From positions 1-64,000 of the forward strand of contig JAJDDT010000042.1 in NCBI GenBank assembly GCA_029260165.1: 64,000 nucleotides of DNA, written 5' to 3'. Below the pieces are notes generated by a model. The model was not told where the DNA came from. It was given only the letters and a program-made list of their open reading frames with translations, and did not search any database. The translations under genes were made by a program, and so were the position numbers. This DNA is from Phycisphaerae bacterium. Lineage in GTDB: Bacteria; Planctomycetota; Phycisphaerae; UBA1845. Positions 5,761-11,427 of the stretch are shown here, one piece after another. Positions within the stretch are counted from its first letter, which is position 1. Every line of letters starts with the position of its first letter.

Positions 5761-6573
5761 ATGCGTGCTGGGTTTTTGGGTCTGCTGGTTTCGGTTGTCG
5801 CGTTGGGAGCGGTGTGCGGATGTGAGACGACGGGCGGGTCGGTCGGTCGTGGGTTCGGTAGGAGATCGGGAGAGGCGTGGACGATCGAGTGTTTGGCGAT
5901 GTCGGGTGAGCGTCATCGGGTGCATGCGGAGCAGATTGCCGAGGTCCTGCGGGTGACGCCCTGGGTGGACAAGGCTGAGGTTCGCGTCGTGAGTGAAACT
6001 GATATTTCCCGGGTTTATTACGGTATGTACTATCGGGCGATTGATCGACTTCGGGACGAGCGCGGGTTGCCTGCCAAGCTTGCGTCGGACCTGGGGATGA
6101 TTCGTGATCTGACCGACGGCCGTGGTTTGCGGATGTTCACGGCAGCGCGGATGGTGCCTGTGCCGTTGGCGGACGTTGGTCCGAGCGAGTGGAACCTCGC
6201 GAATGCGGCGGGCGTGTACACGTTGCAGGTGGGCGTTTTTTTTCAGACGAAAGGGGTCGCGAATCATAAGTCGGCGGCGGTGGTGTTTGTGAAGGAGTTG
6301 CGGGCGCGCGGTTACGAAGCCTACTATTATCACACGGATTCCAAGAGTATGGTGACGGTCGGTGTGTTTGGCGAGGAGGCGGTGAACAGGCGGAAGGATG
6401 GAACCAACATCACGGAGTACAGTTCGCGAATTCGGCGTATGCAGCGCGATGAATTGCTGAAGTACAACCTGACGAATGGGGCGGTCTGGTATCAGATTCA
6501 CGAGGGTCAGAAGGTGCCCGTGCGGTCGCAACTGGTTCGGATTCCACAATTGCAAGGCGCGTGGACCCAATGA
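5761..6573 (+). CDS. Probable lipoprotein with SPOR-like C-terminal domain
   Basis: This 270-residue protein opens with a hydrophobic signal (RAGFLGLLVSVVALGAVCGC) ending in a lipobox-like V-C-G-C, so lipid anchoring at Cys21 is likely. Around residues 155-210 the segment YTLQVGVFFQTKG...ARGYEAYYYHTDSKSMVTVGVF has the alternating pattern of a SPOR domain, which binds glycan strands lacking stem peptides in septal peptidoglycan. The rest has no family I recognise. The ATG at 5761 is preferred; a TTG at 5746 would only lengthen the n-region. The stop overlaps the rdgB start as ATGA, so rph, this gene and rdgB are probably cotranscribed. Confidence 0.7.
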   Translation: MRAGFLGLLVSVVALGAVCGCETTGGSVGRGFGRRSGEAWTIECLAMSGERHRVHAEQIAEVLRVTPWVDKAEVRVVSETDISRVYYGMYYRAIDRLRDERGLPAKLASDLGMIRDLTDGRGLRMFTAARMVPVPLADVGPSEWNLANAAGVYTLQVGVFFQTKGVANHKSAAVVFVKELRARGYEAYYYHTDSKSMVTVGVFGEEAVNRRKDGTNITEYSSRIRRMQRDELLKYNLTNGAVWYQIHEGQKVPVRSQLVRIPQLQGAWTQ

Positions 6574-7175
6574 GCGAGCGAACGATCTTGATCGCGACGG
6601 GAAATACGGGGAAATTGCGGGAGATTCGCGCGGTGATGGATGATCTCCCCGTTGTGTGGGAGACGTTGCAAACGTTTCCGGAGATTGATGAGCCTGTTGA
6701 GGATGGTGCGACGTTTTTTGAAAACGCAGCCATCAAGGCGCGGTATTACAGTCGTCGCACGGGGTTGTGGGCGTTGGCGGATGACAGCGGGCTGGTGGTT
6801 GATGCGTTGGGCGGGGCGCCGGGGGTTCACTCGTCGCGGTATGCCGGGCAGGAGCGTGACGAGGCTGCCAACTGTCGAAAGCTGGTTGAGGCATTGCGGG
6901 GTATTCCGGCAGAGCAGCGGTCGGCGCGGTTTGTTTGTTCGATCGTTTGTGTCGATGGTGATGAGGTGTTGGCGCATGCGGAGGGTCGTTTTGAAGGGAT
7001 GATTGTGGATGAGGGTCGGGGGGAGAACGGGTTTGGCTATGATCCTCATTTTTGGGTGCCGTCGCGTGAGATGACATCCGCGGAGTTGTCACCATCTGAC
7101 AAGAACGCGATGAGTCATCGTGGGGCTGCACTGGCTGCGATTCGTCCTGAATTGCTGCGTGTTTTGGGTGGCTGA
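6570..7175 (+). CDS. rdgB: XTP/dITP pyrophosphatase (RdgB/HAM1 family)
   Basis: This 201-residue nucleotide-sanitising enzyme hydrolyses non-canonical purine triphosphates such as dITP and XTP. The start ILIATGNTGKLREI, the metal/substrate block EDGATFFENAAIKAR, the ADDSGLVVDALGGAPGVHSSRYAG signature and the C-terminal ENGFGYDPHFWVP and SHRGAAL segments are all present. The ATG at 6570 overlaps the stop of the SPOR lipoprotein (ATGA), which indicates translational coupling. A GTG nine bases further upstream is possible but less likely. Confidence 0.95.
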   Translation: MSERTILIATGNTGKLREIRAVMDDLPVVWETLQTFPEIDEPVEDGATFFENAAIKARYYSRRTGLWALADDSGLVVDALGGAPGVHSSRYAGQERDEAANCRKLVEALRGIPAEQRSARFVCSIVCVDGDEVLAHAEGRFEGMIVDEGRGENGFGYDPHFWVPSREMTSAELSPSDKNAMSHRGAALAAIRPELLRVLGG

Positions 7176-7193: not shown

Positions 7194-7221
7194 TTGTACT
7201 CGTGGTCGCGTTGGCTATACT
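7194..7221 (+). promoter_or_regulatory. Predicted sigma-70-type promoter of the polyamine operon
   Basis: TTGTAC at 7194-7199 and TATACT at 7216-7221 are separated by 16 bases. The element lies 19 bases after rdgB ends and about 73 bases before the TTG start of the arginine decarboxylase gene. Pattern match by eye only. Confidence 0.45.
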
Positions 7222-7293
7222 CTCGCGGTTTCAGCCTGACCGTCCCGCAGGGGATGAACCTGCAATCAATCCATTGAATCGGGAGCGACAATA

Positions 7294-7848
7294 TTGGCAG
7301 CACAACTGGTTCCTCGCGAGATGTTTTTCACGAAGGGTGTCGGGAAGCATCGTCAGAGTTTGCAGTCGTTTGAGCACGCGCTTCGTGACGCCGGTATCGC
7401 ACAGTTCAACCTCGTTCGGGTGAGCAGTATTTTTCCGCCGGGGTGCAAAATTGTGTCGCGTCAGTCGGGACTGGAGAAATTGCAGACAGGGGGTATTGTT
7501 CATTGCGTGATGGCTGAGACGCGGACGGACGAGCCTAGTCGTCTGGCGAGTTCGGGGATTGGTCTTGCGGTACCGGCTGAGTCGAACCGATTCGGTTACA
7601 TTTCCGAGCATCATGGATACGGATTGACGCATCGCAAGTGTGCGGACCTTGTGGAGGACATGGCGGCTACGATGTTGGCGACGACGCTGGATATCGAGTT
7701 GGACCCCGACAAAGCCTATGACGAGCGTCGCGAGATTTATCGCGCGAAGGGGTTGATTGTCAAGACGCGTGCGGAGGTGCAGACGGCGCGTGGGGACAAG
7801 GACGGTCTTTGGACGACGGTCGTGTCGGCTGCGGTGTTTTGTTATTAG
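7294..7848 (+). CDS. pdaD: Pyruvoyl-dependent arginine decarboxylase
   Basis: This 184-residue enzyme decarboxylates arginine to agmatine using a pyruvoyl group made by self-cleavage rather than PLP. The cleavage site is expected at Ser44-Ser45 within NLVRVSSIFPPGC, matching the family's Ser-Ser site. The strand GIVHCVMAETRTDEP and the SESNRFGYISEHHGYG-like segment (here AESNRFGYISEHHGYG) are also typical. Translation probably starts at the TTG at 7294, since GGGAG lies 8 bases upstream and no ATG is suitably placed. It is the first gene of a set with the DHS-like enzyme and agmatinase, which fixes its role as the entry step to putrescine. Confidence 0.9.
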   Translation: MAAQLVPREMFFTKGVGKHRQSLQSFEHALRDAGIAQFNLVRVSSIFPPGCKIVSRQSGLEKLQTGGIVHCVMAETRTDEPSRLASSGIGLAVPAESNRFGYISEHHGYGLTHRKCADLVEDMAATMLATTLDIELDPDKAYDERREIYRAKGLIVKTRAEVQTARGDKDGLWTTVVSAAVFCY

Positions 7849-7906
7849 ACCGGTTTCATTGCAAGTGTAGCGGCCTGGGCAATCTCGCATGGTTTGGTTT
7901 TCTCGT

Positions 7907-7925
7907 CACCCACAAGGGGTGACGC
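7907..7925 (+). repeat. Dispersed hairpin repeat, copy A
   Basis: A 19-base sequence beginning CACCCACAAGGGG lies in a 7-bp stem-loop (GTCACCC at 7905-7911 pairing with GGGTGAC at 7917-7923) between pdaD and the DHS-like gene. The reverse complement of 22244-22262 matches 18 of its 19 bases. No T-run follows, so it does not look like a terminator. Confidence 0.5.
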
Positions 7926-7973
7926 TGCATTGGATGCGTTTGTGGATTTGAGTACGAAGGGCGGTGGTTTCGG

Positions 7974-9119
7974 ATGGGGCATGAATGTCCGGGTAGACAT
8001 CAAGCCGGTAAGACGGGCGCGGAGTGGCTGGAGGGTCGGTCGATTGAGCCGTTGAAGCTCCGCGGTCATGAGAATGTTGCGGACATGATTGACAACGTGT
8101 TTGCCGCCAGCGGATTTAACGGGCGTCGATTGGCGGAGGCGGCGGAGCTTTTCGGTCGGATGATTGATGAGGATGCGACGATCGCGCTGACAATCGCGGG
8201 GGCGATGACGCCGATCGGGATGAGCGGGGTTTTTTCCGAATTGATTGAGGCGGGCTTCGTCGATTTTATCATTTCGACCGGTGCGAACATTTACCACGAT
8301 CTGCACCGCCCGTACGAGATGCCGATGGTTCAGGGTAGCCCGAGTGTTGACGACAATGCGTTGGCGGATGTTGGTGTCGCGCGCATTTATGACGTATTCA
8401 TCGGTGACGAGGATACGTTGATGGCGACGGACAAAGCTATTCTGGATGCGTTGAAGGATTTTGACTCGTCCAAACCGTTTTCCACGGCGATGTTGCATCA
8501 TTACCTCGGGAAAGTTGTGCAAGAGCATGCACCGAAAGGTGAGAAATCATTCGTGGCGACGGCGGCGGAGCATGACGTGCCGATCTACACATCGTCGCCG
8601 GGAGATTCGTCGTTGGGGATGAACCTGATCGTGCCGCATCTGTTCAAGTCGGAAGTTCATTTGAATCCGATTTTGGACGTCATCGAGACGGCTGCGATCG
8701 TTCGCGATGCGGATTTGAATGGTGTCGTTGAGATCGGTGGTGGATCCCCGAAGAATTTCTATCTGCAGACGCAGCCCACGTTGCATCAGATATTGGCGGA
8801 CAATGAGAAGGGCGGGCACGATTTTGTCATTCAGTTGACGACAGATGCGCCGCATTGGGGAGGGCTTTCCGGTGCGACACCCGCCGAGGCGCGAAGCTGG
8901 GGCAAGGTCAAGGATGCGTACATCAACAACGTCGTTGTGTATTCGTGTGCGTCGCTGACGTTTCCGTTACTATCGCAATATGTTTTGAGTCGCAAAAAGC
9001 CTCGTAAGTCGAAGCGCCTGTTCGCGAGAATCGATGAGATGGTTCAAAGTCTCAAGGATGTCGCATCCAAAAACGACGATTTCAAGCGTCAATACCAGAG
9101 TATCTACAACATAGGCTGA
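7974..9119 (+). CDS. Deoxyhypusine synthase-like enzyme (probable homospermidine synthase)
   Basis: This 381-residue member of the deoxyhypusine synthase superfamily has the NAD-binding segments TIAGAMTPIGMSG and IISTGANIYHD, DVFIGDED, SPGDSSLGMNL and the GGGSPKNF turn. The catalytic lysine of eukaryotic DHS (in SWGKI) is kept here as RSWGKVK. Bacteria lack eIF5A; bacterial DHS-like proteins (for example Anabaena SpeY) use the same aminobutyl transfer to make homospermidine from putrescine. Lying between arginine decarboxylase and agmatinase, it is most simply the step after putrescine. The product (homospermidine or spermidine) cannot be decided from sequence. ATG start at 7974, with agmatinase following 7 bases after the stop. 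Confidence 0.88.
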   Translation: MGHECPGRHQAGKTGAEWLEGRSIEPLKLRGHENVADMIDNVFAASGFNGRRLAEAAELFGRMIDEDATIALTIAGAMTPIGMSGVFSELIEAGFVDFIISTGANIYHDLHRPYEMPMVQGSPSVDDNALADVGVARIYDVFIGDEDTLMATDKAILDALKDFDSSKPFSTAMLHHYLGKVVQEHAPKGEKSFVATAAEHDVPIYTSSPGDSSLGMNLIVPHLFKSEVHLNPILDVIETAAIVRDADLNGVVEIGGGSPKNFYLQTQPTLHQILADNEKGGHDFVIQLTTDAPHWGGLSGATPAEARSWGKVKDAYINNVVVYSCASLTFPLLSQYVLSRKKPRKSKRLFARIDEMVQSLKDVASKNDDFKRQYQSIYNIG

Positions 9120-9126
9120 GTCGCCC

Positions 9127-10020
9127 GTGCCCCCCGAACAGGTCATCAATAACTTTTTAGGTCTGTCGCGCGAGGAGTCGGACTACGCGACGTCCCGCTA
9201 CGCCGTGTTGCCGATTCCCTACGACAGCAGTGCGAGCTTCAAGGTTGGTACGCGCGAGGGACCGGCTGCGATCATCGCTGCGTCTCAGCATGTTGAGTTG
9301 TTCGATGAGGAGTTGCGGGGGGAGTTTCACGGGGGCGGAGTGGCGACGCTTGACGCGTTGTGGCCTAACATGAGTGGCCCGGAGGCGATGCATGGTGATA
9401 TTTTCAAGGTGGCCAGGGGTGTCGTTCGTGATGGAAAATTTCTGATTGGTCTGGGCGGGGACCACAGCATCACGAGCGCGCTGGTTCGTGCGGCGATGAC
9501 CCAACACAAAAATATCTCCGTTTTGCAAATCGACGCGCATGCGGACCTTCGCGATCAATTCGAGCAGGCCAGGTATTCGCATGCGTCGGTGATGCGCCGC
9601 GTTCACGAGATGGGCGTGCCGATTGTTTCGGTCGGTCTCCGGGCGTGGTCGAAACCCGAGGATCGCACCATGCGGAAACCCGGTATCACGGCCATCACCG
9701 CGCGCGAGTGCATTGATGACGACGATTGGGTGGATCGCGCGATCGAGGGGCTAACTGACACGGTTTATGTGACGCTCGATATCGACGGGTTCGATCCTGC
9801 GTATGCTCCGGGCACGGGGACGCCCGAGCCTGGGGGGTTGGACTGGTATCAGGTGACGTCGCTCTTGAGGTTGGTGGCTGCTGAGAAACGGATCGTCGGT
9901 GCGGACGTTGTCGAGGTTATTCCGCTGCCTGGACAAGCGGTGACGGAGTTCCTTGCTGCCCGATTGGTTTACAAGCTGATTTGTTACGTCGAGTCCGGCG
10001 CGTCGTTGCGGGGTGGCTGA
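9127..10020 (+). CDS. speB: Agmatinase (ureohydrolase family)
   Basis: This 297-residue Mn-dependent ureohydrolase converts agmatine to putrescine and urea. All metal ligands are visible: GGDHS (His113), DAHAD (Asp136, His138, Asp140) and DIDGFDPAYAPGTGTPEPGG with its two aspartates. The TxEPGG form and the PYDSSASFKVGTREGP start favour agmatinase over arginase. It starts at the GTG at 9127, only 7 bases behind the DHS-like gene. Together with the pyruvoyl arginine decarboxylase it completes arginine to putrescine. The next gene, a small membrane protein, starts 3 bases after its stop. Confidence 0.92.
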   Translation: MPPEQVINNFLGLSREESDYATSRYAVLPIPYDSSASFKVGTREGPAAIIAASQHVELFDEELRGEFHGGGVATLDALWPNMSGPEAMHGDIFKVARGVVRDGKFLIGLGGDHSITSALVRAAMTQHKNISVLQIDAHADLRDQFEQARYSHASVMRRVHEMGVPIVSVGLRAWSKPEDRTMRKPGITAITARECIDDDDWVDRAIEGLTDTVYVTLDIDGFDPAYAPGTGTPEPGGLDWYQVTSLLRLVAAEKRIVGADVVEVIPLPGQAVTEFLAARLVYKLICYVESGASLRGG

Positions 10021-10023
10021 TTT

Positions 10024-10368
10024 ATGGCAGCATTCGTGAGCGTTTGGATGGGGTTGGGATGTATGACGGCTGCTGTCACGATGCTTTTCTGGAGGCAGTC
10101 GTTCACGGATTTTCACATTTGGCTTGTTTTGTGGCTCGGTGCTCCGGGGACGATGTGCGTGGCGGGGATGGTCCTGTGGTCTTATCGCAACGAGTATGTT
10201 CCCGAGCCTTCGATTGTCGCTCAGCGATTGCAGTGCAAGGTCGCGATCGGGCTGGCGATTTTGTCTGCCGCGATTGTCTATGCCTTGATATTCGGGGCAG
10301 AGGAGTTTGACCCGGATACGCCGTTTGCGATGGTCGCCCAATTGCCCGCGATGATGACTCGACTATAA
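10024..10368 (+). CDS. Small membrane protein of unknown function
   Basis: This 114-residue protein shows about three hydrophobic stretches (residues 3-22, 30-51 and 73-92) that could be membrane helices. I do not recognise a family. The ATG at 10024 is three bases after the agmatinase stop, so it is probably the last gene of the polyamine operon; a link to polyamine handling is only positional. Its 3' end contains the predicted promoter of thiS. Confidence 0.6.
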
Positions 10369-10390: not shown

Positions 10391-10591
10391 ATGCGTTTGG
10401 AAATCAATGGAAAAACCGAGCAAATCGACAACGTTGACACCGTGGCTGATCTCCTGCGTCATTTTGACGTCGCGCAGACGCGCGTGGCTGTCGAGTTGAA
10501 TCAGAAGCTGGTGACGCGTGCGGAATACGCGTCAGTCACGCTGTCGGCGGGTGATCGTGTTGAAATCGTCACGTTTGTGGGAGGTGGATGA
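10391..10591 (+). CDS. thiS: Sulfur carrier protein ThiS
   Basis: This 66-residue ubiquitin-like carrier delivers sulfur as a C-terminal thiocarboxylate for thiamin thiazole synthesis. It begins MRLEINGK, has the beta-grasp pattern ([31 protein letters not shown]) and ends in the obligatory Gly-Gly. The last codons overlap the thiG start, showing a coupled pair. ThiF, ThiH/ThiO and ThiE are not in the window. Confidence 0.93.
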
Positions 10592-11427
10592 TGTCGGGCG
10601 TAACATACCGCGTGGGGTCTTTCGAGTTTGCGTCGCGACTGTTCGTTGGGACCGGTAAATACGCAACGTTCGAGTTGATGGCTGATGCGCTGGACGCGTC
10701 GGATTGCGAGGTCGTGACGGTGGCCATTCGTCGCGACGTGTTGGGCAGCGATGGCGGTGCGAAAAATGACAGCATCCTCGATCACCTCGATTTGAAGCGA
10801 TACACGATACTCCCGAACACCGCCGGTTGTTTCACGGCTGATGACGCTGTTCGATCTGCCAGGTTGAGTCGCGAGCTTCTTGACGGGCTTGGCAACCGTG
10901 GCGCGAAGTGGGTCAAGCTCGAGGTGCTCGCTGACAGGAAAACGCTGCTGCCTGATCCGATTGGCACGTTGGAAGCGACCAGGGAATTGGTTGGCCTGGG
11001 TTTCGAGGTGTTGGTCTACACGAGCGATGATCCGATCCTCGCGAAAAAGTTGAAAGACGCGGGTGCGGTCAGTGTGATGCCCGCAGGTGCGCCGATCGGT
11101 AGTGGCCTGGGGATACTGAATCCGAACAGTGTTTCGATTTGTCTTGAGTATCTCAAGGAGGGTGATCCGGACTATCCCGTTATCGTCGATGCTGGTGTTG
11201 GTACCGCGTCCGACGTGACCATCGCGATGGAACTCGGCGCGGATGGCGTGCTGCTCAACACCGGAATCGCAGGAGCGGGTGACCCTGTTCGGATGGCTTC
11301 TGCAATGCGACATGCGATCGAAGCAGGGCGGCTGGCATTTGAATCCGGACGCATTCCGAGGAAACGTTACGCGACGGCTTCGTCGCCGACAACGGGTGTG
11401 ATAGGCCCCGTCGTTGCGCCCGTCTGA
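10588..11427 (+). CDS. thiG: Thiazole synthase ThiG
   Basis: This 279-residue TIM-barrel enzyme joins deoxyxylulose phosphate, dehydroglycine and ThiS-carried sulfur into thiazole phosphate. It shows [12 protein letters not shown] near residues 14-25, LPNTAGC (75-81) and the Schiff-base lysine in WVKLEVL (Lys110). It also has [22 protein letters not shown] and [18 protein letters not shown] near the end. Two adjacent ATGs (10588 and 10591) could start it; either overlaps or abuts the thiS stop. Confidence 0.96.

What the first reader, a model, noticed from the sequence alone, without database searches (positions are those of the whole stretch)
7194..10368. Compact arginine-to-(homo)spermidine operon using a DHS homologue
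A pyruvoyl arginine decarboxylase, a deoxyhypusine-synthase-like enzyme and agmatinase lie in one operon with a plausible promoter. The catalytic Lys (SWGK) of the DHS-like enzyme is kept although bacteria lack eIF5A. This predicts a SAM-decarboxylase-independent triamine route. A co-located small membrane protein of unknown role may belong to it.
Basis: partly seen in the sequence, partly recalled or inferred. Interest (0 to 1): 0.55.

Follow-up and report, generated by a model that had tools for sequence, protein, structure and literature searches.

The report
Bacterial arginine-to-homospermidine operon (SpeY type)
A planctomycete-type bacterium carries one operon that should turn arginine into the triamine homospermidine using a relative of the enzyme that modifies eIF5A in our cells; this route is already known, though some metagenomic phage contigs were found here to carry a similar gene set.

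Summary
One likely transcription unit encodes a pyruvoyl arginine decarboxylase, a deoxyhypusine-synthase (DHS) homologue that keeps the catalytic Lys (K311), an agmatinase, a small membrane protein, then thiS-thiG. The proposed promoter is supported: TTG-N19-TATAnT recurs upstream of 11 of 13 related operons. The genome, rated 100% complete, shows no SpeD, no convincing SpeE, and a single ureohydrolase.

The most likely product is sym-homospermidine, by SpeY-like coupling of two putrescines. A spermidine donor is unlikely: the position of human Asp316 is L298, and that of Asp243 probably M216. Agmatine coupling (caldomycin route) is the main rival; it is weakened because six relatives with a clade-A enzyme have no ureohydrolase match. 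This kind of pathway is published (SpeY; ADC-speB-speY clusters), so this is a new member, not a new system. The small membrane protein is a real but optional gene.

By-product: of 22 IMG/VR contigs with a DHS homologue, 18 carry it beside a SpeD-type decarboxylase gene and 16 also beside an agmatinase-like gene; in the other two the contig ends there. Five tested contigs have T4-like replication genes. Two phage SpeY queries found no match in 50,697 GenBank phage records.

The parts
7194..7221 (+). promoter: TTGTAC, 16-base spacer, TATACT
   Evidence: conserved in 9 of 9 aligned loci and 11 of 13 scanned loci; no experiment
7294..7848 (+). pyruvoyl-dependent arginine decarboxylase (PvlArgDC), TTG start
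   Evidence: PF01862 1.6e-55; TIGR00286 above cut-off
7974..9119 (+). SpeY-like deoxyhypusine-synthase homologue (putative homospermidine synthase), ATG start, supported by a CP(G) stretch shared with the N-termini of close relatives
   Evidence: PF01916 3.4e-74; best NCBIfam model NF001980 'homospermidine biosynthesis protein' 421.5 bits, below its cut-off of 450; predicted structure matches human DHS at Z 34
9127..10020 (+). agmatinase SpeB, GTG start
   Evidence: TIGR01230 244.2 bits above cut-off; the only PF00491 match of the genome
10024..10368 (+). small membrane protein, 114 aa, three hydrophobic stretches, role unknown, optional
   Evidence: homologues between speB and thiS in L063, L060, L062
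10391..10591 (+). thiS, probably the same transcript
   Evidence: TIGR01683
10588..11427 (+). thiG, probably the same transcript
   Evidence: PF05690

Best explanation
The operon is a complete arginine-to-sym-homospermidine pathway. PvlArgDC decarboxylates arginine to agmatine, SpeB removes urea to give putrescine, and the SpeY-like DHS homologue joins two putrescines with NAD+: one is oxidised and held as an imine on K311, ammonia leaves, the second putrescine attacks, and the imine is reduced to homospermidine. It stands in for SpeD/SpeE as the cell's triamine route. Shown here: the genes, their order, the conserved promoter motif, the active-site residues, and the lack of the alternatives that were searched. 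Inferred: all catalysis, and putrescine rather than agmatine as the SpeY substrate.
For: Family assignments. Single ADC, single DHS homologue, single ureohydrolase and no SpeD in a genome rated 100% complete. Of 14 genomes sampled in the window's family, 13 have the DHS homologue and 11 of these have the ADC within 1 kb; the other two have no PvlArgDC match. In the order, 25 of 32 PvlArgDC genomes have a ureohydrolase within about 2 kb of it, and in 10 of these the DHS homologue lies between the two (counted by hand). Triamine routes seem to substitute: the 4 of 61 genomes without a DHS homologue all have SpeD plus a PF01564 match on the same contig, against 12 of 61 with SpeD overall (hypergeometric about 0.001 by hand, not corrected for kinship). 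K311, W309 and E305 invariant in 24 sequences; the predicted structure matches human DHS at Z 34.3, 1.9 A over 306 residues. Human Asp316 is L298 here and human Asp243 probably M216 (through CdmS F204), so a diaminopropane leaving group has no evident pocket. Six genomes with a clade-A enzyme (five of them 97% complete or more) have no PF00491 match, while at all 26 inspected positions their commonest residue is that of the operon-borne enzymes (a tie at position 145); this fits putrescine as substrate. sym-Homospermidine is reported as a polyamine of several planctomycetes (PMC4334474, passages).
Against: No activity was measured. The enzyme scores below the curated cut-off of the homospermidine model (421.5 against 450), as does the relative L005 (413.5). 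It shares some residues with the agmatine-coupling CdmS (L298, E305, D153, and an acid at D145). The pairwise alignment puts a gap at M216 and N217 opposite human Asp243, so that replacement is less sure than L298. In none of the f5 and f8 loci of the same clade was an ADC found beside it (three have speB beside it), so clustering is not a rule. The enzymes of the six ureohydrolase-less genomes show 12 fixed differences from ten operon-borne ones over positions 20-344, one of them G215 to Ala beside M216; one of the six genomes (G004) also has a clade-B enzyme, and how the six make putrescine was not found. Three of the four DHS-less genomes are only 67-87% complete. Some planctomycetes lack homospermidine: Planctopirus limnophilus has putrescine and spermidine, and Stieleria maiorica spermidine.
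Confidence: 0.7

Rival explanations
1. Agmatine homocoupling: the DHS homologue joins two agmatines to caldomycin (1,9-bis(guanidino)-5-azanonane) and SpeB then removes both guanidino groups, giving homospermidine without free putrescine.
For: Shown for CdmS of Thermus thermophilus (PMC10981699, parts 1 and 2 of 4 read). The operon has exactly an agmatine maker, a DHS homologue and one ureohydrolase. The window keeps CdmS L286, E293 and D143 as L298, E305, D153, and an acid (D145) at E136.
Against: CdmS S67 and F204 are A77 and M216 here. The enzyme groups with the NF001980 clade, not with the CdmS-type clade NF002699 (174.5 bits against a cut-off of 500; tree). Six genomes with a clade-A enzyme have no PF00491 match to finish the route.
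Confidence: 0.2
2. Spermidine plus putrescine: the enzyme moves the aminobutyl group of imported spermidine to putrescine, as plant homospermidine synthase does.
For: Same fold and same catalytic Lys as human DHS.
Against: Human Asp316 is L298 in all 30 clade-A rows and Asp243 probably M216 (M in 29 of 30), and no spermidine synthesis gene was seen in the genome.
Confidence: 0.05
3. Protein modification: the DHS homologue modifies EF-P or another protein, as true DHS modifies eIF5A.
For: DHS ancestry; haloarchaeal homologues (32-34% identical in the best segment) often have an agmatinase-like gene nearby (four of five loci), which PMC5178350 (passages) ties to aIF5A modification.
Against: The one EFP_N match of the genome reads VAKGNKRSYMQGKLKN at the loop; by eye, Asn stands where E. 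coli EF-P has Lys34 (E. coli sequence recalled, so this is weak). ADC and SpeB in one operon point to small polyamines.
Confidence: 0.03

Closest known systems
SpeY pathway (DHS-like homospermidine synthase with speB and an arginine decarboxylase), PMC10407285 and PMC9992855 (passages)
   Same: ADC, agmatinase and DHS homologue clustered; homospermidine as product; no SpeD/SpeE route needed. Clusters with speY are described there, and speDA directly upstream of speY in the planctomycete Gimesia maris.
   Different: In the passages I saw the ADC is a SpeD (AdoMetDC) descendant or PLP-dependent; here it is PvlArgDC (PF01862), a different fold. The order ADC-speY-speB of this lineage is not in the passages I read.
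NCBIfam NF001980 / PRK00770 'homospermidine biosynthesis protein'
   Same: Best-scoring model; sister clade B in the tree (96% SH-aLRT); 42% identity to L090, the clade-B member that was scanned and scores above the cut-off (519.9).
   Different: 421.5 bits, below the curated 450; the window lies in a separate clade of 30 rows (98%).
Caldomycin synthase CdmS of Thermus thermophilus, PMC10981699 (NF002699)
   Same: DHS homologue that works with a ureohydrolase; same catalytic Lys.
   Different: Different clade; S67 and F204 not kept; 174.5 bits against a cut-off of 500.
Human deoxyhypusine synthase
   Same: Fold (Z 34); Lys329; also Glu323 and Trp327 (these two numbers counted or recalled).
   Different: Asp316 is L298, Asp243 probably M216, His288 (number counted) is N261. 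Besides EF-P no eIF5A search was made in the genome.

Membership tests
DHS superfamily (PF01916) | profile match above gathering score | tested here: met
   250.2 bits against 27
DHS superfamily (PF01916) | catalytic Lys in SWGK | tested here: met
   K311, invariant in the 24 aligned sequences
DHS superfamily (PF01916) | DHS fold | tested here: met
   predicted model, mean pLDDT 90.3; Z 34.3 to human DHS over 306 residues
True deoxyhypusine synthase | binding-site Asp pair (human D243, D316) | tested here: not met
   D316 is L298; D243 is M216 by way of CdmS F204, or N217 by the pairwise alignment
NF001980 homospermidine biosynthesis protein (curated equivalog) | score over curated cut-off | tested here: not met
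   421.5 against 450; sister clade in the tree
SpeY (DHS-like homospermidine synthase) | makes homospermidine from two putrescines with NAD+ | not testable with these tools
   needs an enzyme assay
SpeY (DHS-like homospermidine synthase) | found with putrescine-making genes, SpeD/SpeE not needed | tested here: met
CdmS caldomycin synthase (NF002699) | score over curated cut-off, and residues S67, F204, L286, E293 | tested here: not met
   174.5 against 500; A77, M216 differ, L298, E305 kept
BvHSS-type homospermidine synthase or CASDH | PF03435 gene over cut-off in the genome | tested here: not met
   three matches, none over cut-off
PvlArgDC | TIGR00286/PF01862 match | tested here: met
   124.9 against 106.95; 187.8 against 22.7. 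NF009064 is below its cut-off, 187.5 against 207
Agmatinase | TIGR01230 match | tested here: met
   244.2 against 174.3

The most novel reading that the evidence does not exclude
The arginine-to-homospermidine pathway also exists as a compact phage cassette. In IMG/VR, contigs with T4-like replication genes carry, side by side, a SpeD-type decarboxylase related to the pelagiphage arginine decarboxylases, a SpeY and an agmatinase. Such phages would make homospermidine from host arginine by themselves. This is in related loci, not in the window.
Probability: 0.7. Interest if true: 0.6.

Novelty: new member of a known kind. Interest (0 to 1): 0.36.

Why it matters
For the window: it points to the triamine route of a Phycisphaerae-like lineage, suggests that SpeY and SpeD/SpeE replace each other within one order, and gives a testable question (putrescine or agmatine as the SpeY substrate) that an assay can settle. 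[quoted passage not shown] the contigs found here would change that, and would give phages a complete SAM-free triamine pathway rather than one enzyme that leans on the host.

Tried and rejected
Generic promoter and Rfam scans of the locus gave nothing useful; the promoter was supported only by comparing relatives. The PF01564 match in the genome was checked and dropped as a spermidine synthase: 24 bits, in a methyltransferase-like ORF. Ten neighbouring ORFs of loci where the DHS homologue stands without the ADC or speB of the window were scanned: phosphoesterase-like, YgfK-like, histidine ammonia-lyase, epimerase, glycosyltransferase and MFS-type matches, three with no match, none a polyamine enzyme. 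Not searched: agmatine deiminase, N-carbamoylputrescine amidohydrolase, and decarboxylases of the aspartate-aminotransferase fold; the genome searches had run out (12 of 12). Of the SpeY papers Shaw 2010 and Burnat 2018, both known to me by recall and from citations, the first is not held and the second was not looked up. In one search the row labelled CdmS S67 is one column off; the residue matching S67 is A77, read from the alignment.

Rows dropped: before the first tree three rows that duplicate others (L063, L054, L104) were left out; they were used in place of L007, L005 and L006. The promoter alignment used 9 of 13 ADC-speY loci; the other four were scanned, and two of them (L079, L080) lack the motif. 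Four of 22 viral loci (L140-L143) have another DHS type without the cassette. The second tree holds 18 of 22 viral rows; L130, L135, L137 and L139 were not put in. Of the ten proteins, besides those cited, L083, L098 and L101 pass no cut-off and the haloarchaeal L008 passes that of a deoxyhypusine synthase model.
Full report
What is there. The ORFs named in the finding are present on the + strand: PvlArgDC 7294-7848, DHS homologue 7974-9119, agmatinase 9127-10020 and a 114-aa hydrophobic ORF 10024-10368, followed by thiS 10391-10591 and thiG 10588-11427. Upstream lies a Ham1-type NTP pyrophosphatase 6561-7175. Gaps are 125 bases between ADC and DHS homologue, then 7, 3 and 22 bases. Family matches are strong for the three enzymes. 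For the DHS homologue the best NCBIfam model is NF001980 'homospermidine biosynthesis protein' at 421.5 bits, under its cut-off of 450.

Promoter. A generic scan found no site before the ADC. An alignment of nine upstream regions, the window's included, has eight invariant columns, and all eight fall in TTG and TATA-T. A direct scan finds TTG-N19-TATAnT, a 16-base spacer between hexamers, in 11 of 13 ADC-speY loci, starting 73 to 105 bases before the ADC match; L079 and L080 lack it. In the window it is TTGTAC 7194-7199 and TATACT 7216-7221, a weak match taken alone.

Genome context. The window's genome is rated 100% complete with 1.71% contamination. It has one PF01916 match, one PF01862 match, one PF00491 match, none for PF02675, none over cut-off for PF03435, and one for PF02784, which is LysA. 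The one PF01564 match is 24 bits in a methyltransferase-like ORF. So SpeD, SpeE, HSS/CASDH and PLP decarboxylases of the alanine-racemase fold other than LysA are not seen; the aspartate-aminotransferase fold was not searched. Absence rests on profile searches of a 119-contig assembly.

Comparison in the order. In 61 genomes (the window's and 60 drawn), PF01916 is in 57 and PF02675 in 12. The four without PF01916 (G002, G006, G053, G058) all have PF02675 and a PF01564 match on the same contig (in G058 the latter is cut by a contig end). If the labels were independent this would have a chance of about 0.001 (495/521,855, worked by hand), without correction for kinship; three of the four are 67-87% complete. 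Eight genomes have both. PvlArgDC is in 32 of 61. Counting by hand from the coordinates: in 10 the order is ADC, DHS homologue, ureohydrolase; in 3 ADC and DHS homologue are near and the ureohydrolase elsewhere; in 15 ADC and ureohydrolase are near with no DHS homologue between them; in 4 none of these. In the window's family, 11 of the 13 genomes with the DHS homologue have the ADC within 1 kb, and the other two (G013, G050) have no PvlArgDC match. In the f5 and f8 loci of the same enzyme clade no ADC was found beside it; three (L062, L065, L077) have speB beside it.

Relatives of the DHS homologue. A tree of 66 rows separates six groups, each on one side of a supported branch: the window clade A (30 rows, 98% SH-aLRT); clade B (7 rows, 99%), sister to A (96%), whose one scanned member (L090) scores 519.9 bits against the NF001980 cut-off of 450; the CdmS-type clade (8 rows), of which four were scanned and score above the NF002699 cut-off; an unlabelled clade C2; a divergent clade D; and haloarchaeal DHS. 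The tool warns that several long branches meet.

Mechanism. K311, W309 and E305 are invariant in the 24 aligned sequences and match human Lys329, Trp327 and Glu323 (the last two numbers counted or recalled). The AlphaFold model (pLDDT 90.3) superposes on human DHS at Z 34.3, 1.9 A, 306 residues. In PMC10981699 (parts 1 and 2 of 4 read) human Asp243 and Asp316 are the two binding-site residues that differ in CdmS (Phe204, Leu286). In the window Asp316 is L298. Asp243 is M216 if mapped by way of CdmS Phe204, while the pairwise alignment puts a gap there and N217 opposite. His288 is N261, an Asn in all rows of the five groups counted. This argues against spermidine as donor. Between putrescine and agmatine the residues do not decide: L298, E305, D153 and acid D145 agree with CdmS, A77 and M216 do not. 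With Lys299 as anchor, a Trichormus plasmid homologue matches the other six CdmS residues at one constant offset, which supports the mapping. A better test is genomic: the CdmS route needs a ureohydrolase, and six genomes with a clade-A enzyme have no PF00491 match (G004, G016, G020, G028, G036, G052; completeness 97, 99, 98, 100, 99 and 55). At all 26 inspected positions the commonest residue is the same as in ten operon-borne enzymes (a tie at 145); over positions 20-344 there are 12 fixed differences, one of them G215 to Ala beside M216. G004 also has a clade-B enzyme. I take this as moderate support for putrescine.

What is known. PMC10407285 (passages) states that homospermidine is made by HSS or by the DHS homologue SpeY, describes clusters of SpeD-derived ADC, speB and speY, and names Gimesia maris with speDA upstream of speY. 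PMC9992855 (passages) shows SpeY in Pelagibacter and Fonsibacter clusters. PMC4334474 (passages) reports sym-homospermidine in several planctomycetes, but not in Planctopirus limnophilus; in PMC12254169 (passages) one Stieleria has spermidine instead. So the pathway and product are established; what is added here is a PvlArgDC version with a recurring order and promoter. A search for 'phycisphaera' with 'polyamine' lists 20 of 22 papers; no title is a polyamine analysis of a Phycisphaera, and I read passages of two of them only (the two just named).

Small membrane protein. Homologous stretches lie between speB and thiS in L063 (73%), L060 (56%) and L062 (34%), and an ORF of similar size and start stands there in L065. 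In L055, L064, L081 and L075 thiS follows speB without it; in L057, L078 and L103 no homologue was found. It is a gene, optional to the pathway, with three hydrophobic stretches. Its role is not known.

Phage cassette, seen in passing. A scan of IMG/VR with the alignment gave 22 loci. In 18 a SpeD-type stretch lies next to the DHS homologue or one gene away, and in 16 of these an agmatinase-like stretch does too; in the other two (L130, L139) the contig ends at the DHS homologue. Two orders occur: speY-speB-speD (five contigs) and speD-speY-speB (13 contigs). In L125 and L124 the three score 450-455 bits for NF002699 (cut-off 500), 143-155 for agmatinase (cut-off 174.3) and 52-55 for SpeD (cut-off 75.65), each below the cut-off; the SpeD-type protein of L155 passes the PF02675 score, 44.5 against 25. 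Among 50,697 phage records the SpeD-type protein of L125 matches 12 (11 pelagiphages, one uncultured phage; 41-52%) and that of L155 11 (10 and one; 33-41%). The HTVC201P protein, 46.6% identical to that of L125 and 33.7% to that of L155, was shown to be an arginine decarboxylase; but some other phage SpeD homologues, of Myoviridae, act on ornithine (PMC9992855), so the substrate of the second order is open. The SpeY of L125 and of L155 have no match in those records. The five contigs of the second order that were tested (L151-L155) carry the clamp-loader family phrog_168 of T4-type replication; L155 also has DNA polymerase phrog_262 and a UvsX-like recombinase, closest at 60% to Methylophilales phage Melnitz. 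Of the first order, nine ORFs of L145 and four of L146, L147 and L149 have no PHROG match, so their viral nature rests on the IMG/VR label. A marine origin is inferred from relatives; no sample data were seen. The 14 cassette rows put into the second tree form one group (100%), next to a Sphingomonas plasmid homologue (97%) that lies beside a type III PLP-dependent enzyme. Papers holding 'phage', 'homospermidine' and 'deoxyhypusine synthase' (6), 'auxiliary metabolic gene' with 'deoxyhypusine synthase' (1) and 'pelagiphage' with 'agmatinase' (2) show no such cassette in their titles and abstract starts; PMC9992855 says that no SpeY homologue was detected in viruses or phages; PMC9599517 holds none of five searched terms.

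Verdict. Observation confirmed, interpretation supported, mechanism likely but untested, kind already known. The phage cassette is the more surprising result.

Noticed in passing
L124:2965-5043, L125:2965-5096, L133, L152-L155 and others (IMG/VR contigs): A three-gene cassette of SpeD-type decarboxylase, SpeY and agmatinase-like gene on 16 of 22 viral contigs (18 with SpeD-type and SpeY), five tested ones with T4-like replication genes; two SpeY queries without match in 50,697 GenBank phage records.
   Followed up: yes
L121:1492-2052 (EF-P of the window's genome): EF-P loop reads VAKGNKRSYMQGKLKN; by eye the residue at the E. coli Lys34 position (recalled) is Asn, with Lys next to it, so the usual modified Lys may be absent.
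   Followed up: no
L098-L102 (genomes G057, G060, G009, G039, G048): A divergent PF01916 clade at 21-26% identity, below every NCBIfam cut-off in the two members scanned, with TWEK, TWCK, TWDK or TWGK in place of SWGK; function unknown.
   Followed up: partly
L056, L071, L074, L076, L082-L085, L087, L089, L093: Another clade (C2), all from family f4, in which Gly replaces the Asp at window position 109 and Leu the Asn at 105; the one member scanned passes no NCBIfam cut-off.
   Followed up: partly
L140-L143 (IMG/VR contigs): Four viral contigs carry a DHS homologue grouped with clade C2, without the polyamine cassette.
   Followed up: no
window 10391-11427: thiS and thiG follow the polyamine genes closely here and in several relatives (for example L063, L060, L055, L064, L081), a recurring neighbourhood without a reason known to me.
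   Followed up: no
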